From assembly GCA_019188255.1 (NCBI GenBank), contig JAETXT010000005.1, positions 3,968,001 to 4,032,000 on the forward strand: a stretch of DNA of 64,000 nt, written 5' to 3'. Below, one piece after another: positions 6,343-41,857 of the stretch. Position 1 is the stretch's first letter, and each line of letters opens with the position of its first letter. The stretch is from Verticillium longisporum. Its lineage: Eukaryota > Ascomycota > Sordariomycetes > Glomerellales > Plectosphaerellaceae. The notes under the pieces are model-generated. The model was not told the DNA's origin. It did no database searches and saw nothing but the letters and a program-made list of their open reading frames with translations. Position numbers and translations under genes: made by a program.

Positions 6343-6895
6343 TCATATCCCAAGTCCCGCGACCATCTTGGCATGAATCACCTTCCGGTTGCCCTCACAC
6401 TGCCCCTTGACGGTCCCCACGAGAAGCCTCGAGCACTTGATCGTCACAAATTCTTTCATCTCCAGCCCCTCGCCCTCGCCCTCAATGGTCCACACAGTCT
6501 CGAGCACGATGCCCATGGGACTCCGAATCCGCACGAAAAGCCCACCGGCGAGGTTCGTGAACTCATAGGTACTGACAATGTCCGAGTCCCAAAGACCCGC
6601 GGGCAACGTGTGGACGATGTCTGTGACCTGATAGCACTTGGTGTCGCCGAGGGGCGTAATCTCCGCGGGCAGCGGGGCAGGAGAAGGGCTCGCGATGAGT
6701 TCAAACTTGGACATGGCGGGGAGCACTGTATAACGTGCTCGTGGTTGTGGAGCATGGCAATGGCATCAGTGCGTGTGGCGGGTGACGGGATTGGGGTGAT
6801 GTGAGTGAGGCTCTGGGAAGTGTTGAGGAAGCCTGGGACAGTATGAGTGAGTGTACGTTGTAGACTTGCGGGGCGCGGCGTGACGTACTAGCCAT
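6343..6895 (-). CDS. Small DUF7053-like protein, frame broken once
   Basis: This is a fungal protein of unknown function that resembles the DUF7053 family. Exon 1 is only 7 nt (ATGGCTA, 6895..6889), followed by a 56-nt intron (GTACGT ... CCCAG, 6888..6833) and exon 2 to 6343. Splicing gives MASFLNTSQSLTHITPIP and then DAIAMLHNHEHVIQCSP, the usual start of this family. The continuation (MSKFELIASPSPAP, CYQVTDIVHTLPAGLWDSD, FVRIRSPMGIVLETVWTIEG) lies one frame away. One more base in the G run at 6718-6721 would join them into about 165 aa. I infer a homopolymer error or a recent indel. An alternative is a shorter protein starting at an ATG inside the second frame (MSKFEL). Function is not known. 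Confidence 0.6.
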
Positions 6896-8229
6896 GGTTG
6901 CCGAATTACGATGCTATCTTACTTCAGATGTCGGGGGTGATGGGATATGCTCCAATTAAGCCGAAGGGTGATGCTGTCTCTTAAAAAGTGATGCTAGATA
7001 TGATATACGGATGTCTTTTGGCCAACGAAAGTAGGCATTGGCGTTGACACACGAGGCGTCTCAAGCCGAGCGTCCCTGCCGTCATGACTGACGCGCGGTG
7101 TCCTGCGCACGTCGATCAGGGGTTGAGGTGGGTCCTGTTATGCTGGCCATCTATGCTCCACAGCGATGGATGCTTCTAAGTACATATTGATCTTAAATCC
7201 AACCTTACCTTCCCAAGCTCGTATGCCGGAAAGTCAAACTGAAAGTTCCGGGTCTTCGACCATATTCCTTGATTATTTGTAATGATCACGAATCGAACAA
7301 TTGTTCCAGCGCATCGCGAAGCCCAGTCAGCCACCGCCTTGGTGAACTGAGGCGGTTCTATCCGTCACAATTCATTATCATCTCGAATATAATGCTTGGC
7401 ATATCGGAACAAGCTTGGCAATTCGATTGCACTTGAAGCTAGTGTATGTCGCTTCTTCGGACTTCCTACAGTATGCATCGGGGCTGCCCTCCTAAACAAA
7501 CATGTAAGGTCCATCGCATGGTGAGACGAAGAAGATCATCTATTGTGGCGCCAAAGAAAAGAGTATGGCTTGAGATGAAGGATTGGAAACAAGTGATAAA
7601 CAGCAAGTAGTTGATGTAGAAGAAAAGCAAAAAGGATTTCTCCTTATTGCCGTGTGCCGGTCTTGAACCCTCCGTCCCTCCACGCGCTTTCTGGCCTGCG
7701 CGCCCATCGCAGTTAGGGGGATGCGATTTTTGGGTATTTATTTAGGGTCACCCCTGGGACCACTGCACCATGCGTCACGGTGCGGTGATCCCTGTTGGGA
7801 AAAGGTCAGGTTGCGGGTGGTTATAACGTGCTGTACACAGGGCAGGGGAAGGAGGCAGGAGCTCGCTGCCAGGGGATACAGTTTGGGTGAAGAGTGGGTG
7901 ATTCAACATCACTTTTGACATGAAATCTGCTGGCTACCAGAGTTTTTCACCATGACCATACGACGCACCAATGGCCATGCTTTTCAATTGGCTGTGGATG
8001 CGACCATTGATGATGTGTTTCACAAGAAGGAACCCGCAAGCACCAGGACAAAACTTCGCCGAGGCAAGTAGATACGCGCGCTGTACAAGTCTAGTTTCGA
8101 AGATCAAAGGCACATCATCTCTCAACACCGCTAGTTCTAGACATCGACATAGGCGTACTCCTACATTCTCTGGGTATCTAGTCATCTCTCCGTACATAAT
8201 GTAGCATCATTCACACACACTCAGATATC
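6896..8229. other. Intergenic, no gene seen
   Basis: About 1.3 kb contain only short open frames without family resemblance. No tRNA, repeat array or transposon end was recognised. Confidence 0.45.
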
Positions 8230-9525: not shown

Positions 9526-9761
9526 GGTAATTTTGGTGATCAAGGAATTACGTCAAGGAAAAGACGAAAGTGTTGAGTCTACATCGAGGGGGGCAGCCAC
9601 GACATCCGAGGGGTATGACTACGTAGGATTGAACAGGAAGGCGTGACGCGTCCAGGAATTCCGAAGCAAGGAAGGAGCCAAATATTCAAGACCGATCATT
9701 ATGATCAGAAAATACAGTAACAACATCTGAATATACAATTCACTCATCGGCTTCGCGTACA

Positions 9762-12700
9762 TCACATCAAGCTGCTCCGCCCCCCAATCTCCATGCTAGG
9801 CTGTCCATCCTTCATCTCTCCGCTTCGGCCCACGACGAACTCGTGGTAGATTCTCTTCAGCCTGTTGCGCTCCTGCGCGCTTATCGACGCCTTGGTTTCC
9901 ACGAGCGCCTTGACAAGGTGCTTCCACCCAACGACGACTTCCTTGTCCTCCACCGCCGCCTTGACCGCTTCCGGCTGCTGCGCACGCCTCGCCCTTTTGC
10001 GCGCTTGCTTTATTCCTTCAAGCTTGGCCATGATAGCCGCCCTCTCGTGGAACTTGTTCGGCTGGATCAAGGACGTAGATGACGGCTCCTCGGGCTCGCA
10101 GTAGGGGAACTGCACGTAGCTCGGAACAGATTCGGCCTTGTGGACGCCGTTTGTTTTGCCGTTCGCCACAGGCTCGTTATGGCTGTCATCTTGGAGCACA
10201 TCGTGAATGGCCTCGAGTTGCGCGTTGGAAATGAGGCCTTGAAGGTCGGCACCCGAAAAGGCCTCGCAGCGACGAGCAATTTCCGTCCAAGCCTCATCAG
10301 ACTCTGACATTTCGGGGTCCAACTTGACCTGCTGAGAAAGAGCCTTGAGGATGTCGACGCGGTCTTCGAGGGTCGGGAGGTCACACAGGAGGGACTTGTC
10401 GAGACGACCAGGACGAAGCAAGGCCGGGTCGATGAGATCTGGCCTCGAGGTAGCGGCGAGGACGTACACGCCCGAGAGACCTTCAGCGCCGTCCATAAGA
10501 GTAAGGAGCTGGTTGACTACCCTGTCTGTCACACCTGTAGAGTCGTGGCCGCGCTTGGGTGCGATCGAATCGAACTCGTCGAAGAAGAGAACCGACGGCT
10601 TGGCTGCTGATGCTCGTTCGAACAAATCTCGAACACTCTTCTCGGATGCACCTATGTATTTGTTGAGGATCTCAGGACCCTTGACACTGATGAAGTTCAA
10701 GCCGCATTCGCCTGCTACCGCACTCGCAAGCAATGTCTTACCGCAGCCGGGATAGCCATAGAGAAGTAGACCTGAACGGAGACGGAGTGGGCACTTCTCG
10801 AAGACCGGCGCGTACTTGGTGGGGTATAAAAGCGTCTCCAGAAGCACCTGTCGTGTCTCTTGAAGACCACCAATTGAGCTAAAGGTGGTTGTCGAGCTCT
10901 GCAGCGAGACGTCGCGAAGAGATGTGGGCGTGAAATCTTTCAGAGCATTGTCAAAGTCCAGCCGGGCCAGGCGAATTGGCCCCAGCTTGGCGTCCGGCTT
11001 AGAGGAGTTGTCTACCGACCGTATCACGGCCTCGTGCTGTGCTCTTTCAATGACAACGCTAAGATCCTTGGGCATGTATCCATCAGTCAAGCCAGCAATG
11101 TCCAGGAAATCGAGATCAGAGTCCAGTATGAAACGTCCAGGCTTTCTCCTGGTATTCTCGCGACTGCCTTGGCTGGCGCCGTCCATCCAGTTGCTTTCTT
11201 CGGCCGCAGCGCTGCCATCGGCCGTCGTAGGACGGCTTCCATCGTGCGAGGGCGCCGCATCAATATCAGGCGAAGTGGCTTCTTGCTTGACAATGGCCTC
11301 TAGAACCTGGCGTCTCGCGTCCTTATTCGGCGCCTTGAGCTCCAGAACCTCTCGAAAGACATTTGCTCCCACAATGATCTCGTTGAGCGCCTCTTTCCCC
11401 TCCGCTGTTGCTAGGAGCACTACTCCGCTCTCGGCACTGCAATACTGCCTGACCATGGAGCTAATGATCTCGCTGACCTGACGGCTGCGACCGTTGTCCG
11501 TTGTCTGGAGTTCCGTCTCTGCGGGGCACGATGTGTCGGGGTCGTCGAGGATAATCACAGCCTTGCCGCCGAACTTGGCACCCCAGCTGGCCGTCAGGAA
11601 CAGCTGATTCAGAGTTGATCTGATGGAGGCCATTCGGCTTTCGTCGTTGACAAGCTTTTTGCAGGAGAAATAGGTAGTGTGGAAAAAGGAGTCTTCGCGC
11701 AGCCTCTGCGCCACGTATTTCGCAACGGATGTCTTGCCGGAACCCGAGGCACCGGTCAAGAGGCTCGTCGATAGGTTCGACAGGTGGGACTGTAGGTCCA
11801 GCAGCAGCTTGTCGATGCTAACAAGGAGACCATCGTATGAAGGCAGGGGCTCCGCAATGCTGTCCTCGGTCATCCATGCGGGGCGTGGAATAGGGGCCTG
11901 AAACTCGATGGGAGTTTTTTCGCTGATACCGAGGGTCCACCTGCCCGGTTCCTTCGAGTCAGACGAGCTCGGTGCCGGCTCGAACTTGATGACACCACCC
12001 TCCCAGCCCTGGGGGCTTTCCAGGCCGTCGTACAACCCGAACAACGTGCCGTCAGTGAGAGGACCCGCAAGTAGCGACGAGGCCTTCTGAGAGCCTGCAT
12101 AGATGTGCCTGAACGTCTTTGCAGCTTCTTCCCTCTCGGCCTTTGATTCCGAACCAAACTTGAGGCCCTCGCTTGTCTTTTTGGATGTAGCAAAGGGATA
12201 GACAGCTAGCTTCTGCACCGCTTCCCGACCCACAGGTTGCGAGGCTGCCTCTATCTCAATGATGCCACCCACCATGCCGGTGATGCCCAAGGCCGCGCAT
12301 AGAGGTGATGACAGAGCAGCAGGCTTGCTGTCCGGCGGATCATCCCACGCACGCAGGTTGGCGACCACTTTTGTCGCCACATGCGAAGTGACCGGCGCCG
12401 GGTCGTCCGCCTGGGGCCGAGGCGTGTTCGCCACGCTCCCAGACTCGCGCAGCACGGTCACCAGCACATAGTTGACACCAATGAAGCCACGGGCATGCTG
12501 TAGTTAGTGATCTACCCAGATGCTGAAATCAGGCGCCACGACCTACTCTTCGAACCAGACGAGGCTCGTATTACTGTCGTCACCCCTGAGGGTGATCTTG
12601 TACTTGCGCTCGCGCGTGCTCTTCTACGGCCGGAGCTGGTGCCGCTGCGGCGCGACTTGGATGTGCTGGCAACGCTGCGGTTCTCGGACGAGGACTGGGT

Positions 12701-13443
12701 CGTTTTCGGGCGGGTCTTGGGGGCGACGATGACCTCGGCGTCAGGAGAAATCTTGGCAAATGGGTAGTCTGCTGGCGGAGGAGGGTCGAGGGAGATTGTC
12801 TTTATACGAGCGGTGGAGGTCGGAGAAAGGTGCAGAGTCAGGGCGTGGGCTGGCACGGGCTGGCCTGAAGCGGATTTGAAAGCTGGATTCGGCAGCGCGC
12901 GGACCTGGGAGAGGAGATTGAGCTCCAGAAATGTGGCATGAAGCTCAATAATCTCCCAGTCTTCGGGAGTCAGAGGCTCGAGGTTGATGGTGTGGACCAG
13001 CGGGGGTCGACGTGGATCGAGGCTGTGACCTTCTGGCCGTCGGTCAGGCCTAGGGTATTGGCGAGGGTCGCGTCTATCTCGACAAGACCAATGTCCTGGT
13101 CGCGAGAGGAGGGGTTCCCCCTTATGCCATTGATGCCGTCGCGTCCGACAACGGGTGTGACCTTGCGCTTGCTGGGCATGCCTGTCCAGCCGACGAAGAT
13201 GGACTGCGGCGCGGCGGAAGGGGCACCGCCCGTCTGGGGGTTCGGTAGGAGAGCTCGACAACTACATTTTGAGCAGGCTTTGAGGTGTCAGCGCAATGTC
13301 TTGCTGTTCCTCTTGAGGTAACATACAGTATTGATATTGACCAAGAGGGAGACCAGCGAGGAGGGGAGGTTGACGAGACAGTTGCGCAGGTGAACGAGCG
13401 ACAGCTCGGCTGGTGTGGATTGGGCGTTCTTGCGGGGTGCCAT
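9762..13443 (-). CDS. PEX1: Peroxisome biogenesis AAA+ ATPase Pex1, N-terminal third with several frame breaks
   Basis: Pex1 forms a hexamer with Pex6 that pulls ubiquitinated Pex5 out of the peroxisomal membrane. I start it at 13443 (MAPRKNAQSTPAELSLVHLR). A 49-nt intron (13326..13278) joins NINT to PAQNVVVELSYR; a second (12546..12498) precedes GFIGVNYVLVTVLRESG. The intact 901-codon frame carries D1 with Walker A TGASGSGKTS near residue 534, and D2 with Walker A GYPGCGKT near 864, Walker B LFFDEFDSIAPKRG and TSRPDLIDPALLRPGRLD. Total is about 1195 aa, a normal length. The N-terminal domain (IFVGWTGMPSKR, HTINLEPLTPEDWEIIELH, WFEE) is in correct order but split over frames at 13236-13240, 13002-13006, about 12621-12632 and 12491-12493. 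Each is curable by one base, and three of the four are G/C runs. Confidence 0.88.
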
Positions 13444-14401: not shown

Positions 14402-17084
14402 TCAAGCATCCTCACTGCCCTCACGCTCGGCATCGTTGCCAGAGGCGTTGATGAACACAAGTCTCGTCATGTTGCCAGCAGTTTGCCAGACCTGTCGGCC
14501 TTGTCAGTACAATCGGGTTACGTGTAGTGGACAAGGGTATACTCACATCGAGGCTGTTGTACTCCTCCAGCGCGGCGAGCCACTGATCCTCCGTAAAGCC
14601 CTTGGCGATGACTCTCTCCTTGACCTTCCTCAAGCTCAGCACGCCGTACTCGTCGTCATCGTCCGCATCGTCGGGCCTGCACGCGCCACTGTCGGCCAGC
14701 GCCTTGACCATGTTGTAGATTCTGCTGTTGGGGTTGAGCCTCTGGCGGCCAGTGCCCTGGTCGGCGGCGAGCGACTCCTTTGAGGCCTCGAGGAGACGCA
14801 GCGCCTCGTCCACATCGTCCTGCTCGACAAGGTTGCTGAAGCGCAGGCGCGCGAGGGCCTGGGCGATACGAATGATGCCGAGAAGAGTTCGCGGCGTGAC
14901 GTGGGTGAACTGCTCGCCCTTCTTCTCAGCGCGGCGCTGGGCCTCGCGCATGCGGACGTACGTCTTGCTGACGTATTCCATGACGCCCGCCGTGACGACT
15001 GGGCGGTAGGTGCGCGCCTGGGCAATGTAGGAGCGGACTTCATGAGGGCTGAAAATAACATCGTCCTCACCGGCGACGGGGGTGGCGAGAGTGCATGTGC
15101 ACGTAGGCGACGTGCTTGGCAAGCTGGGCGTCGGACTCGCGGTTTGGCGTGTCAAGGATCAGGAACATGATATCGAAACGCGAAAGAAGGGCGGCGGGGA
15201 GATTGATGTTCTCGACAGGTGAGAGGCGGGGGTTGTATCGGCCGTAAAGAGGGTTAGCTGCGGCAAGAATGGAGGTGCGGGCGTTGAGAGTGGTGGAGAT
15301 GCCGGCCTTGGAGATGGAGATGGTCTGTTGTTCCATGACTTCGTGGATGGCCGTGCGGTCGTTGTCGTCCATCTTGTCGAATTCATCGATGCAGCAGATA
15401 CCATTATCGGCGAGGACAAGGGCACCGCCCTCAAGGACCATCTCGTCAGTCACTGGGTCACGGATGACGGCGGCTGTGAGACCGACGCCACTGCTACCAC
15501 GGCCAGAAGTGTACACGCCGCGCGGCGCGACCTTCGAGATGTACTTGAGCAGTTGGGACTTGGCCACACCAGGGTCACCCATAAGGCAGACGTTGATGTC
15601 ACCACGAATCTTCATGCCGTCCTTGACCTCCTTCGTCACACCACCAATGAGGAGCAGGAGCAGAGCCTTCTTGACATCGACGTGGCCGTAGATCTCGGGA
15701 GCGATGGACTTGGCAAGCAGCTCGTACACCTGTCCAGATTGCCTGTACTGCTCAATCCTCCGCACAAGCGCGGGATCAATGATCATCTCGGAGTAGGCCT
15801 TCTTGTGCTGCAGAATATAGTGAGCCTCGAGGTATGTGTCGGTGAGGAGGCCAGCCTTCATAGCCTTGAAGCCAGTGTAGGGAGTGGGCATGAAGATGCC
15901 GGATATGTCGACAACGTCGCCAGGGTTCACCTTGCGTACGGAGGAACCATAGCAGAGAACAGTGAGTGTTCGAGGGATCTGGCCGATGGGAACCTGTTCA
16001 GCCATTTCCTGAACCTTGACCTCCTGGAAGGGGAGGAACTTGGACGCTCTCGATGATGGTTGCAGTTGGCTGCGCGACTGGTTCTTCTTGCACGTCTCCG
16101 AGGGACACATGGTCAAGGGAGTGTGCTGCTTGTCGGTAACAGGCTGGAAGATTTCACTGCCACAGCCCTCACAGTAGTAGGCGCTGACGGAGACGACAGG
16201 CTTGACGTCGGACACTCGGGTTGCGATGGCGCGGACCGTGATGAGGTGGCCCAGGTGCTCGCCGCGTACATCACGGACAGCCATGGCCTTAGACTCGTGA
16301 TCGACAGTCTGGGTACGGGGCTTGAAAGCCAGGGTGTAGCGGCGCGTCAGTTCTGCGGGGAAGCGCTCGGCAGCGGCAGGAAGATCGCCGTTCGTGACAG
16401 CCACATCCATGGCCTGGTTATGTTCTTCTCGCCGCCTCATGACAACATCGAGAACGTCTTCCTTGAAGCTTTTCACATGTCAGCAATGTATAATTGGAGC
16501 AGTCGAGTCGCGAGGGGTCAGACGTACGACTCCTTGTTCGTTGGCGCCGGCATCTGAGAGTCAATGGCTCTCGAGAAAATCTCGACATAGTGCTTGGTAT
16601 TCAGTTCGACCGATTCGACCAGCTTGAGGCGCTCGCCTGTGTCGGCTTCCAATGACTTCTCCCACTAGATTCTGTGTGAGTTCGTCGCTCGATGCACAGC
16701 GCATTGGGAAATACTGACCCCGTGAAGGTCGTCCAGGTCTAGCATGACCTCGTTGATCTTGCGATCTGCCAGCTCTTGCAGGATAATCTGATACTTTGGC
16801 TGGGGAGTGCGTGCCTCTTTCTGGCGGCGGCGCCTCTCCTCCGCAACCTCGTCGTCCTCCATGACATCGTCATCTTCGTCAAAGTCATCCTCATTTATTG
16901 TTACGTTGCCGAGGGCATGTGTGATGGTCTGCTCGGGAGTGGCTTTGAAGTCATTGAGGAATGACTCGAAGGCGGCTGCAGTGTTTGTAGTCAGTACTTA
17001 TCGCCATGTCAATGCTGAATCGCGGGGAAGTGTACCGAGCTGTGCCTCGTACTGGACTGGCGCCTTGAATTGACGGAGCGCCAT
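14402..17084 (-). CDS. MCM7: DNA replication licensing factor MCM7, one frame break
   Basis: MCM7 is one of the six subunits of the replicative helicase. Five exons are inferred: 17084..17036, 16975..16719, 16664..16528, 16468..14547 and 14491..14402, giving about 818 aa. The start is [17 protein letters not shown] zinc site has CEGCGSE and CPSETC. The ATPase core has Walker [13 protein letters not shown], Walker [10 protein letters not shown] and the arginine finger SRFD. The C-terminal lid region is [22 protein letters not shown], and the last exon gives [19 protein letters not shown]. Between HMHSRHP and VAGEDDV the frame changes at a G run on the plus strand (15078-15082). One base fewer, or two more, restores it. 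MCM7 is essential, so a sequencing error is likelier than inactivation. Confidence 0.92.
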
Positions 17085-18907
17085 CGTGAGTTGTAGATGG
17101 GCAGATACTGTCAGCAGAGCTTGTGATCCGTCAGAGAAAGTAGATGGAGCCGCTCGATGCGATGCGAAATGCAACAATGGGAAATGCGCGTCGCAAGAAG
17201 CTCTGTCGGTGGGGGGCTGAGATGCGGGACGGAGGACGGGATGGATTGGATGGACGTCGCTGGTTGTTGGTTGCCAAGGGGTTGCCCGGTCTCACAAATT
17301 GGAATGCTGGTAACGCGAGAAGACGCGTTTTCTCGCGTCGCGTGTGAAGCCGCCCACCACTACAGGTTTAATGGGATTATGACTAAGCCAAACGATGGGC
17401 CACGAATATGGCTACTACCATCCTCTCGTTTATGGGAAGTCCTACGTATTCCAGCTGCCCATCCCCACTGGGTCTGGGTCAAATTGCCTTCGAACGGTGT
17501 CGACCCCAATTGCTATCACAAGGCCTACTAAAACCGACCATCGTAGTTATTTCCCTTGGCTGGCTTCCAGCATTGCGCCCCGCGGTATATGTCATGTTTC
17601 ACCAGGGAAGAATAATATCACAAGCTGAAAGATGACAAGGGCGGCGAATGCGCGAGGAATTACTCATAAATCTGGCATGAACAGTCATTCTTATGTCTAT
17701 CGGGGCATGGATCCCGTAATCTCGTCTTGTAGACGTTTTTGTATCAGACATATGTACCTGGAACACCGGAGGCCGCATCACGCTGGTGGCCATCGGGGGG
17801 TTATGCGCACATAACGTGATACGTCTGTGAGCACGACTATTGGCCTTTAATCTTGCCTGTTCGACTAGGTATCTCATGGAGTGAAGCCTGTCCGCTACAA
17901 AGTATGTCACAGGAGAAGAGTGTCGAGACATGATGCCGAATGCTTTGCGCACGTTAGAACGCTTGTTCTTCAGTCAAACCCAGAGGAGCAGGCGTTCGAA
18001 GCAGATCGCGGGCATTGCAACTCTCCAGTATTATGATGCCTCAAGTACAACCACCCTCTAGCGCATAGCCTGGTGCTCCAATGCAATCAAGGCCCAAGCT
18101 CAAAACCTGCTGTGTGATAAAATTGTGCTGCGAGACCGAAAGGATGCACTTTTGAGAAGCTCCGGACCATAACGTGTACGCCGACCGGTTTCCCAGGATC
18201 TGCGCGGCATCCTTGAGTCACCCTAGAAAAGGTACAGTTCCTTCCTCGTTTGCAAATGCCATTCACGGGTTTCTATATCACTTCGCCTGGGGGGTTAAGA
18301 TGACCTAAGTCGAAAGCTAGTTGTGGCCATGTAGTACGGGATGGAGGAGGTAAAGCGGATTAAGATTTGCACACGGCTCGTAGTGGAGTCGAGCAACATC
18401 GTGCACTGGGGGCAAGTCTTGAGGTGTTTTTTCAGCTGTCCCTGACTCTTGTGTTATTCATACCAATAGAGCACTGGAGCTGATCTGGCATAGCCGAACT
18501 GGTTTTCTTCATCTTTTGTTTCGACTTCAAGGTCGTTACGTGGGCGACTTGAGGCCCTTCCAAAGAGCCCCGTGCATGGTGGTGACAGTGATGAGATTTG
18601 TCTCCTAGACATGACTCCAGAAACCCAACGACATGTAGCGCGATATTGATGTCAGATCAACACCAGATGTTTGGCACGTAAAGCATCCGCAGCCGACACG
18701 GAACAAGAACCACGTCACTAACAGCTCACATACGCCACAGAGCCTTGTCTAAGGGCGAAAGTGGCAAACTCCATCGCCAGAGCAGCACATCAACGACACA
18801 TCACTTGGAAGCAGAAGACGAACGAGATGAAACAGAAACCATCCATATGATACAGTATACATGCCAGAGACCATGGTACATCTAACTCTACAGAGTGACA
18901 AGCCGCT
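17085..18907. other. Intergenic, no gene seen
   Basis: About 1.8 kb upstream of MCM7 and downstream of the next minus-strand gene. Short open frames only, with no family resemblance, tRNA or clear repeats. Confidence 0.45.
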
Positions 18908-22363: not shown

Positions 22364-24748
22364 TCAGAAACCGAGGGGCGAGAGTGGCTTGATGGGCGAC
22401 AGTGGCCGAAGATCTCCCGAGCCCCTTGGTGCGTCTTGGTCGCTATTAATGGTGAGCGTTGTCGACATGGTCAAGTTGCACCCGACGCTACCATTGGAGC
22501 CATGCGAGTCGGAGAGTGGTAGGGCCTTCTTCTTCAGCCGCGTTTTGGGTTGTTGGTCCTGGCCCTGACTAGATTGTTTACTGCTCTCTGACGACGAGGC
22601 GGCTCGGTCGACCGCACGCTCGTCGTTGGTTGCCGGGAGCTGCTCGTCGGGGACAGGTTTGCGTGACTCGGAGACACCCCGTGGAGGGGTTGGTTCAGTA
22701 GTAGATACTCCTCTTCGATATATTTCGCCTCAGCTTTGCAGCCTTTCCAGCACTCGCGCCAATCGCAAACCAAGAACCGGAAGCAGAATGCGTCAATCTT
22801 CATGCACGGCTGAAAGCAAATGCACAAGTTGCGAAAGTCCATCTTGTTCTTGTCTGAATGTGCGAGCAAGAGACTGAGATGACAGGTGATGGCGAAGAGC
22901 AGGTAATAGTTGAAGGGCGAGAGGTTGGAGAGTTCGTCGATCAGCAACTGGGGAACCTTGTCGGAACCAGCGCACTCTTTGGCAACCCTCTCCTGAGCGG
23001 CCTTGGGGAAGAGCTCATCGGGAAGCTCGCGCAACCAGGCCTTGAGCATGGAGCCGATGATGTTGATGTCGTACAGATCGTCCTGCTCAAACAGATTGAC
23101 ATCCAATTCTAGACGCCAGTTAGTTTCGATTCCGCAAGAGGATCGCAGTAAGACAAACCTTCATCAAATCTCCTTTGCCACTTCTTGATTTGAGGCCCGC
23201 TGCCCGGAACTCGGTAGAGACCTTCAACGTCGCAGCCCTTGTAGTTGAGGTAGTCAATCGCGCGCCACGGAAACGCTGGCATCCAGAACTCGGTCTTATC
23301 CCTAGAATCCTCCAGCTTCCGTGATATGCGCGTTCTCCGGGTCTGTTCGACTAAAGGGAGGTTGATGACCTTCAAAGCGTAGTGTTCGTCATCAATGATG
23401 GGCTCCCGCTCTGTCGTGCTCCCACTACGTATGCTCTTGCCGAATAGTCCTTTGCTAATCATGTCTGCGGCTTTGAGGTTCCTCAGCCCACCAAAGAAGC
23501 TTCCATTGTCGCGAACAGAAGGTGAGGCGTGTTGTCGCGATGGTTCTCTGTCACGCTGATTCTCTTTGTTGCTCTGGTCTCGTTGTGGTAGAGGCGGAGC
23601 ACGGTCTTCTGACCTGTTTCTTGCGGCAGAGTTCATCTTGTTTGTGCTGTTGCTGCTGAATGACCTATCGGCCCCCTGTGGTCGCGCCATGAGGCCTGGA
23701 CTGTTGTTGCCTAGAGGTGCCCTCGTAGATTCTATAGCCTGGACTGGGGAGTGAATGGTCTGGCGGTACTCTTTGGGACTGGGAGTAGGAAGCTCGTTGT
23801 CACGGGCTGATTTGGTCCGTCCCAGTAAACCAAATGGTTTCGGCTTGTTCTTCTTAGACAGATTACTTTGGGAGGCGCTGGTGGTGTATTCTCCCGTGGA
23901 GGAATGAGTCAGGCTGGATTGAGGGAGCTGAGAGGTGGAAGACTGCTGAGCAGAACGTTCCGGAAGAGAGGTGTCTGTCACGCAGAATGTACACAGTTAG
24001 CGGGTGCGCGCAAAGAAGGGATCGTGACGAGCGAAACAAGACGCCGGGCCATGTGGCCTGGAGATGGGACCGGCGCCGTGCCTGGCGCATGCACATTCGC
24101 ATTGGAGAGGGGTTTCAGCACAAGGGGGGGAATCAAGGAACGCGCACGCGCGCGTGCAATTGCCCATACCTGAAAGTTTTGCAGACTTGCTGCTGGGGAC
24201 GGAGGTGTCAGTGCCTCGCGATGCGATCTCGCCCCGCGACTCGGAGCGTCTGTGCTGTTGCTGTAGTTGTTGCGGCTGCCGCTGCTGAGTGGATTGTTTG
24301 TGGGTCGGTTTGGACGACTTTGTCAAATTGAAGAAGAACCCGCTCTTGGAGGGGCGACCCTGATCGCGGGGCTGGGATGGCTGCGCGGTGTTGGACTCGT
24401 GTCGAGGGGCAGGGCGCGGATTTGGCCGCGTGGGGGTCTCGGCAGGCTGATGGAACGCAGAGGTGATCGGGGGTAGTTTTGGGGGTCGTCGTCGTCGTCG
24501 TCGTCAAAGTCTTCGAGGGCGCGCGAATGAGCGTGGGAGGCGGAAGCATGGAGAGAAGCCGAGTCGGGTTTCTTGGGCGAGAATCTACTGAATGGGGAAC
24601 GTGGTGTTCTGGGGGACGAGCGGTGGGAATCTGCGCTCGGGAGAGAGACGACTTGAAGAGTTTCAGCGGAGCGCGGGTGGTGCTCGTCCCCGGGCAGGGC
24701 GGAGTGACCCGACAGCGTCAGCGGCTGCGGTACGGGTTTGCGTGCCAT
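22364..24748 (-). CDS. RhoGAP-domain protein, BEM3-like, with two frame breaks
   Basis: A GTPase-activating protein for a Rho/Cdc42-class GTPase. Three exons: 24748..24170, 23974..23159 and 23108..22364, about 713 aa. The first 350 residues are Ser/Pro-rich and probably disordered, with an aspartate run (EDFDDDDDDD), a Gln-rich part and SKSGFFFNLTKSSK. The RhoGAP domain contains FWMPAFPWRAIDYLNYKG, the arginine finger in GLYRVPGSG, RRFDEELDVNLFEQDD (across an intron), SMLKAWLRELPDELFP and KMDFRNLCICFQPCMKI. The domain resembles BEM3 more than SAC7. The frame breaks at 24481-24485 (after the Asp run) and about 22686-22689 (LLLNQP to RGVSESRKPVP). One extra C/G at each restores a product ending PIKPLSPLGF. 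An intron of 195 nt is longer than its neighbours. Confidence 0.82.
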
Positions 24749-26046: not shown

Positions 26047-26100
26047 TAGGTACCTATCTACCTAGCTACCTAAGGTAGGTACCTAAGGTAAGGTAGGTAG
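26047..26100. repeat. AGGTACCT/CCTAAGGTA repeat cluster
   Basis: Overlapping GTAGGTACCT, CTACCTA and CCTAAGGTA words fill about 54 bp. A 24-bp piece (26076-26099) is identical to 60980-61003. The core AGGTACCT is palindromic. Confidence 0.85.
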
Positions 26101-29100: not shown

Positions 29101-29145
29101 GACGTGACTCGTAACAGGTCCCGTCGACCGCATGCTGCGAAGGGT

Positions 29146-30745
29146 CTATTTGCTAACGCCGCCGCCGCAAGGACCGGAGTGGGTGTGCTCGTGGGCGCCC
29201 TCACGCTTGGTGAACTGGGCACGATCCGCAGCCCAGCGCCTCTGGTTCATGTCGACAGGGCCGAGGGACTCAAAGCTGAGGGCGTACTTGGCGACAGAGT
29301 TGGCAATGCTCTTGGTGTTGAGAAGGTAGGCCTCCTTGTTCAGGTTGTCTACGGTGTCTCCGGCCTTGTGGTAGTTGACATCGTACGCAACGCCAGCCTC
29401 ACCGCCGAAGAGACGCTGTTCCTCCTCGGTCTTGGGGACCTCGGCACCGGTGAAGAGACCTCCGGAGGGGATGCCGTTCTCGATGAAAGCGGCGTAATCA
29501 GAGCGGCCGCTGAACTCAGAAGGCACGTGAGCGGCTCCGTTGGCCTCGTAGAACTCCTCAAAGTCCTTCTCGATAACATCGGAGCCAGCGGGGCCGGTCA
29601 GGCCGAAGGCGCCGCCATCTCCATCGTAGATACCGTAGACGTAGTTGGGCGAAGCAATCTGTCGAGCGAACATTAGCAGATAGTACTTGGTCATTGAGCA
29701 CGTGTGTTGCGTACCATGTCGAAGTTGAGGTAGGCCCTCATCTTAGCGAGCTCAGTGTCAGAGCTGTTGAGCTGCTTGACGTAGTAGTACGAGCCAAGCT
29801 TGCCGTACTCCTCAGCACCCCACCACGCAAAGCGAACAGCGTTCTTAACCTTGAAGTGGGACAGGGCGACGGCAACGTTCAGGACACCGATGGAACCGGA
29901 GCCATCATCGCTGTGGTACTGTTAACTCCCGTTTGGCAAAGCACATGTATATGCAAAGAGTACTCACTTGATACCGGGACCAGCAACAACAGAGTCGGAA
30001 TGGCCACCGAGGACGAGGACATTGTCATGGTCACCGCCCTTGGTCTCGGCAATGACGTTGTAGTTGACGCGGTTCTCGACAATGGCATCAACATCAAAGT
30101 CAACCTCAACTTCGCCAGCCTCGAGCTTAGCAAGCAGCGGGACACTGTCCTCCTGGCTGATGCCAACGGTGGGGACATATTCGAGGAAAGGCGCGCCAAG
30201 GGTGGCAGAGAGCCCACCAGGGACGTTGTTGTAGATGATCAGGCCAATGGCACCAGCGGCCTTGGCGTTCTGCGACTTGAGACCAAAGGCGCAGGTGCCG
30301 CGAGACAGAAGGACGACGCGGCCCTTGGCCTCGGCGGGGAAGTCGCTGACAGCGCAACCAAGGCCGGGGACGTGGAACAGGGGCCCTTCTCAGAGCCGCC
30401 GGGGGTGTAGGTCATGATGCTGCTCTCGATCTTGGCACCGTCGACGGTCAAGGTGGACGTGCCGGTAGCGAAGATCTCGGAGAAGGGCTGCTTGACGACG
30501 TCGTAGTAGTCGAGCTTGGTGAGCGTCTCGTACAGGTAGTCGACGGTGGCGTTGTGGCCGCCGCTGCCAAAGGCACGGTTGCCGCCATGCGCGTCGGCCT
30601 GGTCCTGGAGCGCCTGGGAGCCGGCCATGAGGTCCTCGATCTTGACCAGCTCCTGCAGGGCTTCGCTCGAGACATACGGCTTGCACTTGGCCGCGCTGGC
30701 AAGCGCGGGCAGGGCCAGGGCCAGAGATGCGGTAAAGGTCCTCAT
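29146..30745 (-). CDS. Secreted or vacuolar M28 aminopeptidase with PA domain (Lap2/APE3-like), one frame break
   Basis: A zinc aminopeptidase of peptidase family M28. A signal peptide is clear (MRTFTASLALALPALASAA). Three exons are inferred: 30745..29968, 29910..29715 and 29658..29146, about 495 aa. After the N-terminal region comes a protease-associated domain (GTCAFGLKSQNAKAAGAIGL, PTVGISQEDSVPLL). The catalytic domain shows all M28 ligands: His and Asp in LGGHSDSV, Asp in GINDDGSG, Glu in WWGAEEYGKLGS, Asp in YLNFDM and His in NYHKAGDT. The ending GAHEHTHSGPCGGG resembles fungal leucine aminopeptidase 2 tails. The frame breaks in the GGGCCCC stretch at 30380-30386 (GSEKGP to LFHVPGLGCAVSDF); one more C restores it. 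It likely feeds on external peptides or acts in the vacuole. Confidence 0.87.
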
Positions 30746-31618: not shown

Positions 31619-32662
31619 ATGGCTGCAACCGTCGGCAGCCTGCCGGAAGAGCTCAAGCTTGTCACTGCTGCGCACGTCAGATACATCCAGAGCCTTGACA
31701 CCAAGAAGGACGAATACGACTACTGGCTGACCGAGCACTTGCGATTGAATGGCGTGTACTGGGGTCTAACGGCACTTCATCTCCTCGGCCACCCCGAGGC
31801 CTTACCGCGGAGCGACACCATTGACTTTGTCTTATCATGCCAGCACCCTAGTGGGGCTTTGGTGCAGCCCCGGGCATGATGCGCATATGCTCTCTACAGT
31901 CAGTGCTGTTCAGATTCTCGTCATGCTTGATGCCGTAGACGAGCTGGAATCTCGAGCCAAGGGGAAGGCTCAGGTCGGCAAGTGTGAGTGACCCCGATTG
32001 TTGACCTACAACCAACCGCAGGCTGATAATCCTGAGCAGTCATCGCAGACCTGCAGAACCGAACAACAGGCACCTTTGCTGGCGACGAGTGGGGCGAGGA
32101 AGACACACGTTTCCTTTACGGCGCTCTAAATGCGTTGTCGCTCCTAGGTCTCTTGGACCTCGTCGATGTCGGCAAAGCAGTGGAACACATTGTAGCCTGT
32201 GCCAACTTTGACGGTGGCTATGGCGTCAGCCCCGGAGCCGAGTCGCACTCCGGTCAAATTCTCACGTGTGTAGCTGCACTTGCCATTGCCAAGCGGCTGG
32301 GTGCTATCGACGTCGACAAGCTCGGCCGTTGGCTGAGCGAGCGTCAAGTCGAATGCGGCGGTCTCAACGGCAGGCCCGAGAAGAAGGAAGACGTTTGTTA
32401 CAGTTGGTGGGTCCTAAGTAGTCTTGCTATCATCGGACGGACTCACTGGATCGACAGCGACAAGCTCACGGCCTTCATCCTCCAGGCGCAGGATCCCGAG
32501 TTGGGTGGTATCGCTGACCGACCAGGAGACATGGTGGACGTATGGCATACTGTCTTTGGCATTGCTGGGCTGAGTTTGCTGATGTACCCGGGGCTCGAGG
32601 CCGTGGATCCTGTCTACTGTATGCCGAAAGCGACCATTGAACGAGTTCTGGGTCAGCAGTAG
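31619..32662 (+). CDS. BET2: Geranylgeranyl transferase type II beta subunit, two frame breaks
   Basis: BET2 with BET4 and the Rab escort protein prenylates Rab GTPases. Two exons (31619-31983 and 32040-32662) flank a 56-nt intron; the product is about 329 aa, a normal length. The start is [14 protein letters not shown]. Prenyltransferase repeats are seen as [79 protein letters not shown] and [20 protein letters not shown]. Zinc ligands fit Asp and Cys in KEDVCYSWW and His in VWHT. The frame breaks at G runs 31853-31856 and 31872-31874. One G at each turns the local reading into [14 protein letters not shown], the classic family sequence, continuing with [15 protein letters not shown]. Confidence 0.9.
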
Positions 32663-34825: not shown

Positions 34826-37742
34826 ATGGATCCACCGTTGGCCTCATCAACAACAAGCCAAAATGTGCCCATCGGCTTTCACCCCAAACCTCCCAGCCAT
34901 GACGGCTATCATCCGCTGGAAGACCCGCAACTTCACGCCGCGAATTTCGACCTTGGCCTATCTGAATGCCCTTCAGAGACACCACATGACTTCTTTTCTC
35001 TTTCAGGTGCTCCGCTTCCAGCGGTGCCTTCGGTAGTATCCCCAGTGGTTGCCGTGCGCCTTCCACTCCAAGCGGGTAACGTAAACGCAAGGATTCACGA
35101 TCACGTCAACAAGAACAACAGTAACGCTAGCACCCCCCTCAAGACCACTTCTGCTGTTATTTCCAAGACGCGCAACAAAGCCAACTTTCCTTTGGTGTGC
35201 TACCTTTGCGACAACGAACCCAAATACTCCGACGTTTCCCATCTTCTCACTCATCTTCTGTCCCGTGGTCACGCCAGAGCTAAGGGCAACATCGAAGTCA
35301 GATCCCACATCCCGGGGACGTCGAAGCTGCCCAGAAATTCGCAGCGTTTCAAAAGTGGCAGGACGACAACGGAATTGGGGCTTTGCTGAGTGAACGTTTC
35401 CTGGACAAGAACAACAAGAAGAAGGAGAAGGATCGCGTCGAGGCGGCAAAGCGCAAACGCTTCCTTGAACAGCAGCGTACAGTAAGTCGACACCCCACCT
35501 CAATCGTAGCTTCTTCGGACCAAGTCTTTATATGAATACCCCGGATCTGTGGTCTTCGCACTGATGTTCCTTCCACAATCTCTAGACCCCGGTTTTCACT
35601 GACAACTTGTAGTCTTCGAAAAAGCGCAAGAACCTGTTCTTGCCACACATTCCGACAGAACTCATGGACGACTTCAATATCACGCCCAAGAGCGTCAACC
35701 AGGACTTCGATGGCCTGAATCCCACGGGAAGTCTCGACCGAAATGTGACTCCAGGCTTCCTGGCGGCCCAAGATCTTACCTATCTGGGTCCCGTCTACAG
35801 CGATTACGACAACTCCCGCGTGTCTGACTACGTAGACAGAAGCGATATGGTTTCAGAGTACGCATCTGACAATGATGATAACGTACGCAGGGTTCCGGAG
35901 CTCAAGGGTCAGTATTGGCCTGGCATGCATCTGTTCGATTCCGCAACCGAAGAGGGCAAGAAGAAGCGGAACCAGCGCAAGGATGATTCCGTGATTCAGC
36001 GCATGCGAATCGGCTCGGATGCCATTAACCCAACAGAGATGGTTACTGATATGATGATGAACTTTGAACGCTATCGTCACATTGATGAAGACCCTTCCGA
36101 CGACGAGGTCAGTCCGGTACGTTGAGTGTTCCCATAGTCTTCATACCCGACCCCGGTCCCTCCACGATGCCAGCTAATCGCGGACTAATCGCGGACTTCA
36201 GCTCAAGGGCTCTGCGTCTAAAAAGAAAACATTCATCCACAAGCCTTCAGTTGTCCCTGAGCACATCCTCAAACGAAGATCCAAGGCTCTCGCTACTATG
36301 GGTGGACGCCTATCTACGCCTACCAAGTCGACCCCACGCAAGAGTACCCCCCGCAAAAGCACCCCGAGGAAGTATACACCTCGAAAGCAAGCTGCCGTGA
36401 AGACCCCAAGCAAGAAGCCCAGGAAAGCTCGTGGCCAGGCTACTACTAAAGTAGTCGCTGATAAAGAGGGGACCGGAGAGCGGCGTCCAAAGCGTGGTAG
36501 CGCTACGCGAGCCAAGTCAAGGATTGCTGCACAGGCGGAGCAGGCAGAACACGACATGTTTGACGATCGCGATTCAATCGACCAGGAGTTTGAGATCGAT
36601 TCACCTGATGAGACCCCGATCAAGACCAAATTCAAGAAGGAAACTGCTCGGCGCACCACCCGAAACGACTCCCTACATGCTTCTTACAAGCATTCTGCCT
36701 CGTCCACCGTCGAATCGACTACTGTCAGCACTAAGAACGAGCATGGTGTCTACCAGGATGACGGAGCAAACTTGCCTGGTGCGCTTTCCTGCTTCGTTCC
36801 TATACTCAGAGGCTAAAATAGTGCAGGAAATCCTACGTCTGGCGTGGCGGGCAGGCTTTCCAGCGACTCCAGGCCGGGCGATGCCGTCGCCTATAACCCG
36901 CATCTTGACTTGGTATGTTGAATTTTCTTGCAATCTTTTTGACTTTTGACGTGGGTTGGATGTTCCTCTTCGCCCTTATCGCCGCGCAAAGAAGCGGATG
37001 CGTTTTCGTCCGCATCTTCGGTGGGGAAAACTGCATATGGTTTATGCGAAGAGAAAAAAAAGACAAAATCATTGACCGAATGAACACTCAGGGTATTTTA
37101 CAGCCTCAGCAGCCTCAGCAGCAACCCCAAGGAATAATGCCTCCTCAGTGTTTTGCCCATGGCATGCATAGTCACTGGGCACCAACTCCAGTCTTCAACG
37201 GCTTTGAGCCTCAAGTCATTCCTGGACATGGCATGATTCAACCTCGAGATTTCTACCAAGGTTATCAGCACCAGTCACTTCCGCAAAGCGGCCATAACCA
37301 GAGCTCCTTCTATCACCCCCACCCCCACCCCCACCAGCAGAGCTATGCCTATCCCGACCCGATGTTTCATGACGGCATGTTTCAAGACCGCTCTGGTTCT
37401 GTCAGATCTCCGCAAGTCATAACATGGAACACGGCCAACACTAATGAGAACACCAGCATCTACGGAGGACAGCCCTGGTCCGTGATCAGCGCCGCAGAGC
37501 GTGGATATACCTCCCACCAGAATACTGGATGGGTTGACGCTGGTCATGCTACAACATCTGCTAGTGCGGGTGTTCTTTCCGGAGGCAACCTGAACGCCAG
37601 TGTAAGCGCGATGTCGACAAGCGGCCCAGAAGCTTTAGCTGCAAGCCCCGTGGCCGGAGTTATCAAGCTAGACCCGGCACAGGAATCTACCGATGGCCAG
37701 TCCTATCACTTTGACGATGCCATGGAAGCCATGGGACACTGA
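34826..37742 (+). CDS. Putative nuclear zinc-finger protein with STPRK repeats; frame breaks and unclear 3' end
   Basis: I do not recognise a named gene. Exons 34826-35481, 35613-36116, 36202-36778 and 36827-36912 are supported by frame-consistent splices. Near residue 130 is one C2H2-like finger (FPLVCYLCDNEPKYSDVSH, HLLSRGH). The break at the G run 35314-35317 (HIPG to DVEAAQKFAAFQKWQDD) needs one G. Later parts are conserved-looking: DDFNITPKSVNQDFDGLNP, ELKGQYWPGMHLFDSATEEG and DAINPTEMVTDMMMNFERY. A basic block has tandem STPRK units (about 36316-36390), like SPKK DNA-binding repeats. A last exon from 36992 leads to an open Gln/His-rich tail (MNTQGILQPQQPQ to DDAMEAMGH) only if the frame shifts at the A run 37054-37061. 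A separate downstream gene is possible but would nearly touch the upstream stop. Probable role: DNA- or chromatin-binding. Confidence 0.65.
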
Positions 37743-38431
37743 CGGAGAAGGAGTGCTGACGCAGGGTAGATCACTATGCTTCTTGAGTCGAAAGCGTGAG
37801 CGGTTCCGGGTTCAAAGGGGCCTGCTTGACCGTAATCCCACAAAGTTACAGGAATTACATTCGCGCACGTTAATGACGCATTGATGAGGACTGTCACAGG
37901 TTAGTCAGATGCTGCAGCGAACAGCATTTCTTAGCCTTTCTGACTACTAACACTGGCTTGCAGTATCAGGTTTCGTGCAAGGTCGGCGCGAGCCACATTC
38001 TAGTCCCGGCTCACATTTCGTTCACAAAAAACCGTGTGCGATGTCCCTCGCAGGCCGAAGTCTCTGGGTGTTCCAGCAAAGTCTCTCAGTGCGACGGTAT
38101 CAGCTGGTCGCTGCCACGAACCGGCCAACACTATGGTCTCCTTTGGCAGCCGACCGCCGTACAGGGAGAGGAGTGCCTCCTGGCGAGGTTGGTGGGAGAA
38201 ATGCGTATGGGGCAAAGGAATAATCATTCTTTGGACGACTCGTACGGACTGAAAGACAGGAACTGATGACAGCTGGAAGCGAGGCGTTGAAACAGTTATC
38301 GCCGGCATTCGGCATCTGCAAAGGCCGACAGTCTATGAGACAGCTAGCTTACATTCTCCAAAAACGATACGATTTTGCTTCGATGATGCGACGTGACTGG
38401 ATTTGATGTAACTATGAATTCAGGGCTTGCT
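37743..38431. other. Intergenic between convergent genes, no gene seen
   Basis: About 690 bp between two stop codons. No coding signal was recognised; it should hold both 3' ends. Confidence 0.45.
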
Positions 38432-41400
38432 TTACAGTTGCTCAATGCTCGAGATTAGATGGTCCAGCTGATCAGCAGCGTCCACCTCATTGCCCGTCGT
38501 AAATAAATCGGACAAGAGACGACCAGCTCCCTGCAATCTGCGTATGCGCATATCTCTCTCCAGCTCGCGCGACTTGCGTGCGGCCACATTGATGACCTTG
38601 CGGGGATCCGCGCCAGACGCGCGACGTTGAGGCCATATGACCTGTGCGCGACGCCCTCAGCCACCTCGTAAAGGAACGTAATCTCCTCATCCGCGGCGGC
38701 GTCAACATCGTCATCGCCTTCACCATCAGCGCCGGCCTCGTCGTCAGGCGCTTCCCGCCCATCGGGCCTGGTGGCGGTGAACCGCATGTGCACATTCCGA
38801 ATGGGTCCGTCGCCGGTGGGATCCGCCATGCGCGCGAGGTTCTGGTAATGGGTGATGAAGAGCGTCGGGCACAGGAGGTTATGGGCGACGTGGTGGAGGA
38901 CGGCGTGGGCAATGGCGGCGCCGTCGTGGGTGGATGTGCCGCGGCCGAGCTCGTCGAGGAGGACGAGGGAGCGCGGGGTCGCGGCGCGCAGGACGCGTGA
39001 GGTCTCGGAGAGCTCGAGGGCAAAGGTGGACTCGCCGGCGAAGAGGTTGTCGCGGGCGCCCATGCGGGCATGGATGGCGTCGAGAGGCGCGAGAGTCAGG
39101 GCTTCGGCGGGGACGTAGGAGCCGATCTGGGCTAGGAGAGCGAGGAGCGCGAGTGCGCGGACGAAGGAGGACTTGCCTCCCATGTTGGGACCGGTGATTA
39201 GGTAGGCTAGAGGGGTCGGGGAGGCGAGGGCGGCGGTGAAGGGGATATAGCCGTTGGGTAACGTGTGGTCTGCGACCGGGTGGCGACCTGCGGTGACGGA
39301 GATTTGCGGCGGAGCTGAAGAGGGGAGGAAGGTGGGCTTGGTGTAGCCAGGAAGGCGGGCTACCCGCGCAAGAGACATGAGGCAGTCGAGCGTGGCGAGA
39401 GACGCGACGGCATCACGGAGAGGTTGGTAGGCGTCGTGGGCTAAATCGTGGAGGAGGGCGGCGAAGGCGGCATCGCAAGCCGAAGCGAGAGCTTCACGGT
39501 TCTGATCGCGGGCTGCCAGCAGGCGGACTGCTTCAGGGGTGTGGAAGCGGGAGAGCTTCTTGGTGCCGGAAATCTTGGCCCATGAAGCCGGCACGTTCTT
39601 GAGATCGGTGTTGAGTACCTCAATAAGGTATTCGATGCCGGCGACTGTGACGTAGTCGACGGGTTTCTTCCGGCCGAGCTTAGCGGCGGCATCGCGGCGA
39701 TGCTCGTCAAGTTCCTGCTCGACAGCTACGATGCCCATTTTGAAGTCCTGAATGTCTTCGTTCTGCTCGGCTTCGCGGAAAAAGTTGTACTTGTCATCTT
39801 TGCGAGCAGCCTCGGGGTTGATCTTGTCAAGATAGGAGATGATAGTGTCGAGGATGTGAGGAAGGGAGAGAAGTGCATTTGTGATGAGGGGAGAGTCAAA
39901 CCCGATATCAGAAGCGGTCTGGATGGTCGCGTACTGGGTCGCAATACGCTGCAGGGACTGCAGTACAGCAAGGAGTTCGGGGCGACTACACTTTGCGTAG
40001 TACATGCGGATGAGGCTGCGCTCGAGGTCTGCCTTTATACCGACAAGAAGTGCCTCGAGCTTGTCAACCTGTGGGGTGCCCTGGCCATTGGCGATTTCTT
40101 CGACAGCGGCGACACGCTCCGCAAGCTGACTATCGTCAAGCAAAGGGCGGCCAACCCACTTCCGCAGCAGTCGCTGCCCAAAGCGAGTTGAGGTCTTGTC
40201 GAGGGCCCAGAAAAGGCTACCATGTTCGGTGTGGTCGGTTGAATTACGATATACCTCAAGGCTCTCGAGGGTTGAGCCGTTGATCAGCATGTGCTGGCGG
40301 GTTGTAAAGCTTTGGAAGTATTTGGTCAGATCGAAGATATGCTCGAGGCCATACTCCTTTAGATGCGTGATCATGGCAGACAGACAGATAGTCACGGCCT
40401 CAGGCAAATGTAGGACCTTGTCGAGCAACAGTACCGCGGTCCCATTATCAGCCGACTCCGCTGCCGTATCCTTCATCTTGTCGGCGTAAAACTGAGTGAC
40501 GTGGGTGTAGGCCTCGGCGGCCATCGTTTTCGATCGCGGGACTCGCTCAACGCGGCTCCGATCGCCAAAGACATTGGTACTGCTGCCTGACAGGTGGCGG
40601 ATCATCTTATCTGTGCCCTTGGTGAGGTCCCCTACAATGACGAACTCGCAGGGAAATGTGCAGCAGGCGGGTCTCGATCTCGCTACGCATGAATCCGTCT
40701 TCAAAGTTATCGTAGATGATGTCACCCGTCGCCGGCTGGACTGCCACGATGCCCACATCGACCTTCTCGTCTGTGCCTTGACCTTTGGAAGGCGTCTCAG
40801 TAATACAGAGAAGATAGCCAGCGGCCGGGGCGCCATTATCCCCTTGCGCATCGAGCTCTCCATTCTCGTCAATGTATGTGCCTTTCGTGTAGACGTTGGT
40901 CAGCTTGCGCACGAAAGGCGCATTTCGGTTGTCGCCCGCCTTTTTCAGGGCAGCTGTCTCGATTTGCCGCACGACACCGACCTTGTGACCGGCGGCGACA
41001 AGCCTCTTGGCGTGTACGGGCAGCCGGTGAACGGGGATGCTGGCAGACGCGAAACGGTCGAGATGTGATTCGGAAGGATGCTCGTCGTAGCGGAACTTGC
41101 CAGGTATGCAGACAATGCTCAGCTCGCGGGCGGCGATTCGCGCATCCTCGCCAAAGAAACGAAACTTGTAGCCAACCTCAACGATGAGTACTGTGTCCAT
41201 GTGTTTGCGTTTGATGTCGAGGAACTGTATCTCCATGGGCGTGAGCTTCTTGTTCGCACGAGCGCCACCCTTTTTCGCGCCCTTGGGTGGCGGTGGTGCC
41301 TCTTCCTCATCGCCGTCTTCTCCGTCCTCATCTTCTGCGCCCTGTGTAGCCTCTTCAACGGCAGGACCCCGGCGACGCAGCATGCTGTCTGGGTGGCCAA

Positions 41401-41857
41401 GTTTCTTGACGAAACGTTTGTGAAGATCTTCTTTCCGTCTTCTGGCCATTTCTGCGTCTTCTTCTTCTTCGTCATCTTCTTCGAGTGGTACTGCAGCGTC
41501 AGAAGACGGTTCCACGCAAAGAAAGCGCTCTGTCCGCGATGACGGTTTCGGTGCAGATGGTCGGGCCTTGGACCCAAGAGGCGACGATGGTGCAGGGGTT
41601 ACTTCCCCTTCGGCCTCTTCCGAAATATCGGCCTTTCTCCTCTTCAAAGCCCTATTAGATCCATTGTTGACTCGGTCGGCGTCCTCCTCTAGCGGCCTCT
41701 TCCGGGAAGTCTCGACTGGCTTCGTCTTGTTGGTTTCGGCTCGCGATGGCGATTGCGATTGCGTCGTCGGCTTCTGTGAAGCAGCCACAGGGCTGCTGGC
41801 AGGCCTAGGCTGAAAGAAGCTTGTGAGGGACTTCTGTTTCTTCTCGGCTGGCGCCAT
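38432..41857 (-). CDS. MSH3: DNA mismatch repair protein MSH3, two frame breaks
   Basis: MSH3 pairs with MSH2 as MutS-beta, which binds insertion/deletion loops. One exon of about 1142 aa from 41857. The N-terminus has a PCNA-binding motif (QKSLTSFF, residues 8-15) and a long acidic/basic linker. The mismatch-binding domain begins [20 protein letters not shown] and [19 protein letters not shown]. The core has [12 protein letters not shown] and [20 protein letters not shown]. The ATPase has Walker [34 protein letters not shown] and Walker [17 protein letters not shown], then [12 protein letters not shown]. The frame breaks at 40651-40653 (LLHIS to [15 protein letters not shown]; two C more or one base fewer) and 38602-38605 (RLARIP to [14 protein letters not shown]; one C more). 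After the second fix the protein ends [13 protein letters not shown] at 38432. MSH3 is not essential, but the pattern matches the neighbours. Confidence 0.92.

What the first reader, a model, noticed from the sequence alone, without database searches (positions are those of the whole stretch)
6343..41857. Conserved genes repeatedly lose frame at C/G runs
Eight of about sixteen genes (DUF7053-like, PEX1, MCM7, RhoGAP, M28 peptidase, BET2, zinc-finger gene, MSH3) change frame about fifteen times in all. In each case the family-like sequence resumes at once in another frame. Nearly all sites are runs of 3-5 C or G, and one more base usually cures them. Systematic undercalling of C/G homopolymers in the assembly is the simplest reading. 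Mass decay is unlikely, since MCM7 and BET2 are essential in yeast.
Basis: partly seen in the sequence, partly recalled or inferred. Interest (0 to 1): 0.75.

Follow-up and report, generated by a model that had tools for sequence, protein, structure and literature searches.

The report
Nanopore assembly errors in fungal genes
The apparently broken essential genes in this hybrid plant-infecting fungus are almost certainly mistakes left in its draft genome sequence, mostly runs of one letter written too short, and not real gene loss.

Summary
In detail: 11 of the 13 listed sites are frame breaks in the sequence given. Site 12491 is misplaced; 22686 is unsupported. The genome (72.01 Mb, 16 contigs) fits the allodiploid Verticillium longisporum strain PD589, published as an Oxford Nanopore R9.4.1 assembly. 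Records under V. longisporum and V. albo-atrum encode full-length MCM7, PEX1 and MSH3. The homeologous copy on contig C10 is broken too: 6 of the 11 sites in both copies. Of 12 MCM gene copies, the window's included, 9 carry breaks, and three of six genes are broken in both copies, which real null alleles could not allow. Length disagreement between copies rises steeply with C/G run length: 3 of 233 at four, 5 of 44 at five, 5 of 12 at six or more. Best explanation: uncorrected nanopore homopolymer undercalling. A second error class was missed: one-base losses outside runs and ~130-base scrambled patches, one putting two stops in PEX1. Ordinary artefact, low interest.

The parts
6718..6721 (-). 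DUF7053 gene: frame break at a G4 run (C4 on the coding strand); the homeologue has a longer run and stays in frame
   Evidence: PF23155 split over two frames, profile 2-42 and 35-167
12500..12630 (-). PEX1: scrambled patch with two in-frame stops by substitution and a frame change near 12617-12624; the homeologue and the V. albo-atrum protein lack the stops
13002..13006 (-). PEX1: frame break at a run of five, in both copies
13236..13240 (-). PEX1: frame break at a run of five, in both copies (the copies differ from each other by one base here too)
15078..15082 (-). MCM7: frame break at a run of five, identical in both copies; full-length 818-aa proteins in V. longisporum and V. albo-atrum records
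24469..24473 (-).
30380..30383 (-). M28 peptidase gene: frame break at a run of four, both copies (frame reading only)
31853..31856 (+). BET2-like prenyltransferase: frame break, run shorter than in the homeologue
31868..31874 (+). BET2-like prenyltransferase: frame break at C4G3, both copies (frame reading only)
35311..35317 (+).
38602..38605 (-). MSH3: frame break, run shorter than in the homeologue
40651..40653 (-). MSH3: frame break, run shorter by two than in the homeologue
41271..41275 (-). MSH3: window copy in frame; the homeologue is one base shorter in this A/T run and is broken there

Best explanation
The frame changes are consensus errors in a nanopore-based assembly, very probably V. 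longisporum PD589. The raw reads report homopolymers of about five or more bases, C/G above all, too short, mostly by one base; short-read polishing did not remove all of them. Because the error depends on the local sequence, it often strikes both homeologous copies at the same run and sometimes only one. Scattered one-base losses outside runs and ~130-base scrambled patches are a further part of the same consensus noise. Shown: the breaks, the full-length relatives, the second broken copy, the dependence on run length. Inferred: the identity of the assembly, failed polishing, and the cause of the patches.
For: (1) MCM7 (818 aa), PEX1 (1211) and MSH3 (1145) are on record in full under V. longisporum, and in full under V. 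albo-atrum; W matches the recorded V. longisporum MCM7 at 99% on either side of its break. (2) Both copies are broken: 6 breaks in W and 4 in H over 19.0 kb of coding sequence of three genes. (3) Among twelve MCM-domain gene copies in six pairs, the window's MCM7 pair included, 9 have at least one break and three of six genes (MCM7, MCM6 and L019/L020) are broken in both copies at the same site. (4) C/G runs flanked by identical bases differ in length between copies in 3 of 233 (longer copy four), 5 of 44 (five), 1 of 7 (six) and 4 of 5 (seven or more). (5) Of 1-2-base W/H indels, 3 of 5 in the three genes lie in runs of five or more, against 0 of 65 outside ORFs (Fisher p = 0.0002), so the coding indels do not look like the evolved ones. 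(6) Of 14 breaks present in one copy only, 13 are losses against the sister copy. (8) Homopolymer indels causing frameshift errors are described for nanopore consensus sequences, and R10.4's gain over R9.4.1 is put down to homopolymers (PMC9262707, passages).
Against: No reads were available, so no run length was measured directly. Several breaks are not at homopolymers: in L018, L004, L006, L008, and MCM6 in both copies. The published assembly was polished with ~76x short reads, which should have removed most such errors. My idea that polishing fails where the two copies are nearly identical found no support (4 of 21 against 6 of 35, p = 1.0). None of the 65 short indels outside ORFs lies in a run of five or more, although errors should fall there as well; run-length differences do occur elsewhere in the window outside the three genes. 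For breaks shared by both copies the direction of the change cannot be read from the DNA comparison. The link to PD589 rests on species, size and contig count, not on an accession.
Confidence: 0.95

Rival explanations
1. Real pseudogenisation of one subgenome after hybridisation: duplicated genes are free to lose one copy.
For: The genome is allodiploid with a collinear second copy, so one broken copy could be tolerated. W-only breaks exist, and PEX1 in W has two stop codons by substitution.
Against: 6 of 11 sites are broken in both copies, as are three of six MCM genes. Coding indels differ in kind from non-ORF indels. In the four gene pairs analysed, differences outside the patches are mostly synonymous (192 of 260), so the genes look constrained. 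The two PEX1 stops lie in a patch with the signature of noise.
Confidence: 0.03
2. Programmed ribosomal frameshifting or other recoding at C/G runs.
For: Several breaks are shared at the same run in both copies.
Against: V. longisporum and V. albo-atrum records give MCM7, PEX1 and MSH3 as full-length predicted proteins. H is in frame at five of the same sites. I saw no common motif beyond the run, but made no test for one.
Confidence: 0.005
3. Unrecognised short introns or misassigned frames.
For: MCM7 and others do have short introns, and site 22686 may be a misassigned frame.
Against: At the protein-checked sites the matches in the two frames abut or overlap with no room for an intron, for example MCM7 residues 611 and 612 ending and starting at 15079 and 15080.
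Confidence: 0.01

Closest known systems
Homopolymer indel errors of Oxford Nanopore R9.4.1 consensus sequences
   Same: Losses concentrated in runs, rising with run length, frameshifts in conserved genes, the same run hit in two copies
   Different: Here they survive in an assembly described as short-read polished, and are joined by scrambled patches that are not homopolymer errors
Verticillium longisporum PD589 genome assembly (PMC8406199)
   Same: 72.0 Mb, 16 pseudochromosomes, allodiploid; window and genome agree with this
   Different: Identity inferred from species, size and contig count; no accession was seen
Gene loss after hybridisation
   Same: Broken members of duplicated gene pairs
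   Different: Both members are often broken at the same place, and the indels do not look evolved

Membership tests
Nanopore homopolymer consensus error | Breaks sit at homopolymers, risk rises with run length | tested here: met
   Copies disagree in 3 of 233, 5 of 44, 1 of 7 and 4 of 5 C/G runs of 4, 5, 6, 7+, and in 6 of 131, 3 of 26, 2 of 2 and 0 of 1 A/T runs; 8 of 10 breaks in three genes at C/G runs, 1 at an A run, 1 in a patch. Not met by several MCM breaks
Nanopore homopolymer consensus error | Broken copy is shorter, not longer | tested here: met
   13 of 14 breaks present in one copy only are losses (seven of seven in window and homeologue, six of seven in the MCM copies; the insertion is in the L004 patch). 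Not tellable for breaks shared by both copies
Nanopore homopolymer consensus error | Same locus intact in other data from the species | tested here: met
   P0001, P0121, P0241 under V. longisporum, full length; P0002 also, but with a short out-of-frame stretch of its own
Nanopore homopolymer consensus error | Accurate reads show longer runs | not testable with these tools
   No reads available
Pseudogenes after hybridisation | Second copy intact | tested here: not met
   H also broken in MCM7 (1), PEX1 (2), MSH3 (1); three of six MCM genes broken in both copies
Pseudogenes after hybridisation | Indels like those of neutral sequence | tested here: not met
   3 of 5 against 0 of 65 in runs of five or more
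Verticillium longisporum PD589 | 72.0 Mb, 16 pseudochromosomes, two subgenomes | tested here: met
   72,013,526 bases, 16 contigs; six MCM genes in two copies each; paper sections

The most novel reading that the evidence does not exclude
The ~130-base scrambled patches (PEX1 in W; L004, L007 and L020 among the MCM copies) are real clusters of mutation in single homeologues of a hybrid fungus, rather than consensus noise: short stretches with 116-138 differences per kb from the sister copy, rich in transversions and blind to codon position.
Probability: 0.04. Interest if true: 0.6.

Novelty: not a real feature. Interest (0 to 1): 0.1.

Why it matters
As biology, little. As a warning, it is useful: gene counts, gene-loss estimates and subgenome comparisons drawn from this sequence would be biased, since about one break per 1.9 kb of coding sequence was seen in the three genes checked (ten in 19.0 kb), and stop codons in the scrambled patches would pass for true gene loss.

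Tried and rejected
Gene conversion from a paralogue as source of the patches: rejected for the two patches tested (PEX1, L004); in the whole genome each search returned only itself (100%) and its homeologue (89%). The L007 and L020 patches were not searched.

Polishing failure by read confusion between near-identical copies: tested by local divergence, no support (p = 1.0).

Deficit of long C/G runs as proof: the run-length spectra show only a mild drop and I had no control genome, so I do not use them.

A density scan for further patches flagged three places in the window (54799, 56889, 60311) besides L004, L006/L007 and L019/L020. I looked at 54799 and 56889; they look like ordinary divergence. 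60311 was not looked at. The scan did not flag the PEX1 patch at its threshold. L007 and L020 were taken as the corrupted members by my recollection of conserved MCM sequence, not by a call.

Papers: four searches seen as listings (the last, for Apollo with polishing, nanopore, assembly, fungal and frameshift, found none). PMC8406199: passages and sections 5 and 16. PMC7482064: passages. PMC9262707: passages. The Apollo paper is not held. That MCM2-7 and BET2 are essential in yeast is recalled.

The protein searches list only the best 120 of 4609, 693 and 726 hits.
Full report
What was checked. The window is G000:C12:3968001-4032000 of a 72,013,526-base genome in 16 contigs. Its MCM7 has a close relative on contig C10, and the surrounding C10 region (L009-L016) aligns with nearly the whole window in four collinear pieces at 85-94% identity. 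I call the window copy W and the C10 copy H. The MCM-domain search found 15 matches that resolve into twelve gene copies in six pairs at 94-95% identity; I take them as MCM2-7, of which MCM7, MCM4 and MCM6 were named by searches and the rest by inference. So the genome holds two subgenomes. The best MCM7, PEX1 and MSH3 hits are named Verticillium longisporum, an allodiploid species. A published V. longisporum assembly, strain PD589, has 72.0 Mb in 16 pseudochromosomes; the two others in that paper have 15 (PMC8406199, sections 5 and 16 read). I take the window to be from PD589; this is inferred.

The observation. I read all 13 listed sites in three frames in W and H and located the runs. 11 of 13 are frame breaks at a C/G run. 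Five are in W only (6718, 24481, 31853, 38602, 40651); six are in both copies (13002, 13236, 15078, 30380, 31872, 35314), of which the first three are protein-checked and the last three rest on frame reading. At 24481 the run that differs is 24469-24473. Site 12491 is not a frame change at a run: PEX1 changes frame at about 12617-12624, inside a scrambled stretch with two stop codons made by substitution. Site 22686 is not supported. All eight genes keep at least one confirmed break.

Checked against proteins. MCM7 (818 aa), PEX1 (1211 aa) and MSH3 (1145 aa) are on record in full for V. longisporum, and in full for V. albo-atrum. Ungapped tblastn of the V. longisporum proteins gives 6 breaks in W (MCM7 1, PEX1 3, MSH3 2) and 4 in H (MCM7 1, PEX1 2, MSH3 1) over 9,517 and 9,528 coding bases. 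Of these ten, eight are at C/G runs, one (H, MSH3) at an A run and one in the PEX1 patch. The yeast MCM7 structure sequences are matched by the two frames at 188-626 and 633-753. DUF7053 is one Pfam domain split over two frames. The prenyltransferase and RhoGAP domains are found in separate pieces.

Is it error or evolution? First, in the three genes 6 of 14 observed C/G runs of five are at a break, 0 of 3 of six, 1 of 84 of four, 1 of 346 of three; for A/T runs 1 of 35 of four, 0 of 12 of five, 0 of 2 of six (run counts; assignment to breaks mine). Second, for C/G runs with identical flanks in W/H and in the five other MCM pairs, the two copies differ in length in 3 of 233 (longer copy four), 5 of 44 (five), 1 of 7 (six) and 4 of 5 (seven or more); for A/T runs in 6 of 131, 3 of 26, 2 of 2 and 0 of 1. 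Some of the longest may be true differences. So the effect follows run length and is not confined to C/G. Third, 1-2-base W/H indels lie in runs of five or more in 3 of 5 cases in the three genes and in 0 of 65 outside all ORFs of 100 aa or more (p = 0.0002). The zero cuts both ways: it shows that evolved indels look different, but uniform error should have left a few there. Fourth, 13 of 14 breaks found in one copy only are losses against the sister copy.

Beyond the window. The twelve MCM copies, ten of them outside the MCM7 pair, give a wider test. Over the stretches of about 3.6 kb held, 9 of 12 copies have at least one break: L002 and L003 (MCM7, that is W and H), L008 and L017 (MCM6), L019 and L020, L018, L004 (MCM4, by its pair L005) and L006. 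In L001, L005 and L007 I saw none. In three of six genes both copies are broken at the same place. MCM2-7 are each essential in budding yeast (recalled), so these cannot all be true.

What did not fit. Some breaks are not at runs: the single-copy losses in L018, L004, L006 and L008, and the shared MCM6 site. Also, four coding patches (PEX1 in W, L004, L007, L020; 526 bases in all) carry 67 substitutions against the sister copy, 116-138 per kb, while the rest of the ORFs analysed has 23-41 per kb. In the patches transitions to transversions are 23:44 and codon positions 1, 2, 3 are hit 20:19:28; outside they are 174:86 and 32:30:198 (p = 2.5e-6 and 2.1e-7). A 1:2 ratio and indifference to codon position are what random base errors give. 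Caveats: I set the patch limits by eye, found the PEX1 and L004 patches while viewing breaks and stops, and found L007 and L020 by a density scan. No donor sequence was found for the two patches searched. Their length is near one 150-base read, so I suspect a polishing fault; that is inference.

Mechanism. The PD589 assembly was made from R9.4.1 nanopore reads, assembled with Canu and polished with short reads by Apollo. Nanopore consensus sequences are known for homopolymer indels that cause frameshifts, and R10.4's gain over R9.4.1 is put down to better homopolymer calling (PMC9262707, passages). The PD589 BUSCO score, 97.9%, is below the 99.1 and 99.3% of the PacBio strains. Why polishing left so many errors is not settled; confusion between near-identical copies found no support.

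Verdict. Confidence 0.95.

Noticed in passing
12500-12630; L004 (coding nt about 550-665), L007 (838-955 by L006 numbering), L020 (2320-2465 by L019 numbering): Scrambled patches of ~130 bases in one homeologue, rich in transversions and blind to codon position; the PEX1 patch has two stop codons.
   Followed up: partly
17821-17822, 53394-53397 and 63441-63602: Breaks in collinearity between the window and its homeologue: about 137 and 166 bases more in the homeologue at the first two, about 160 bases more in the window at the third.
   Followed up: no
P0002 (V. longisporum MCM7 record): One of the full-length V. longisporum MCM7 records has a stretch of about ten residues that differs from P0001 and P0003 and matches another frame of the same DNA, so other assemblies of the species may hold small frame errors too.
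   Followed up: no
43879-44367 (+): Small cysteine-rich ORF with a signal-peptide-like start by my reading; probably secreted. Not studied.
   Followed up: no
62410-62485 (-): tRNA-Lys (CTT) found by ARAGORN.
   Followed up: no
L008 nt 2133 and L017 nt 2127 (coding strand): MCM6 is out of frame at the same place in both copies although the sequence there is not a homopolymer and differs by one base between the copies.
   Followed up: partly
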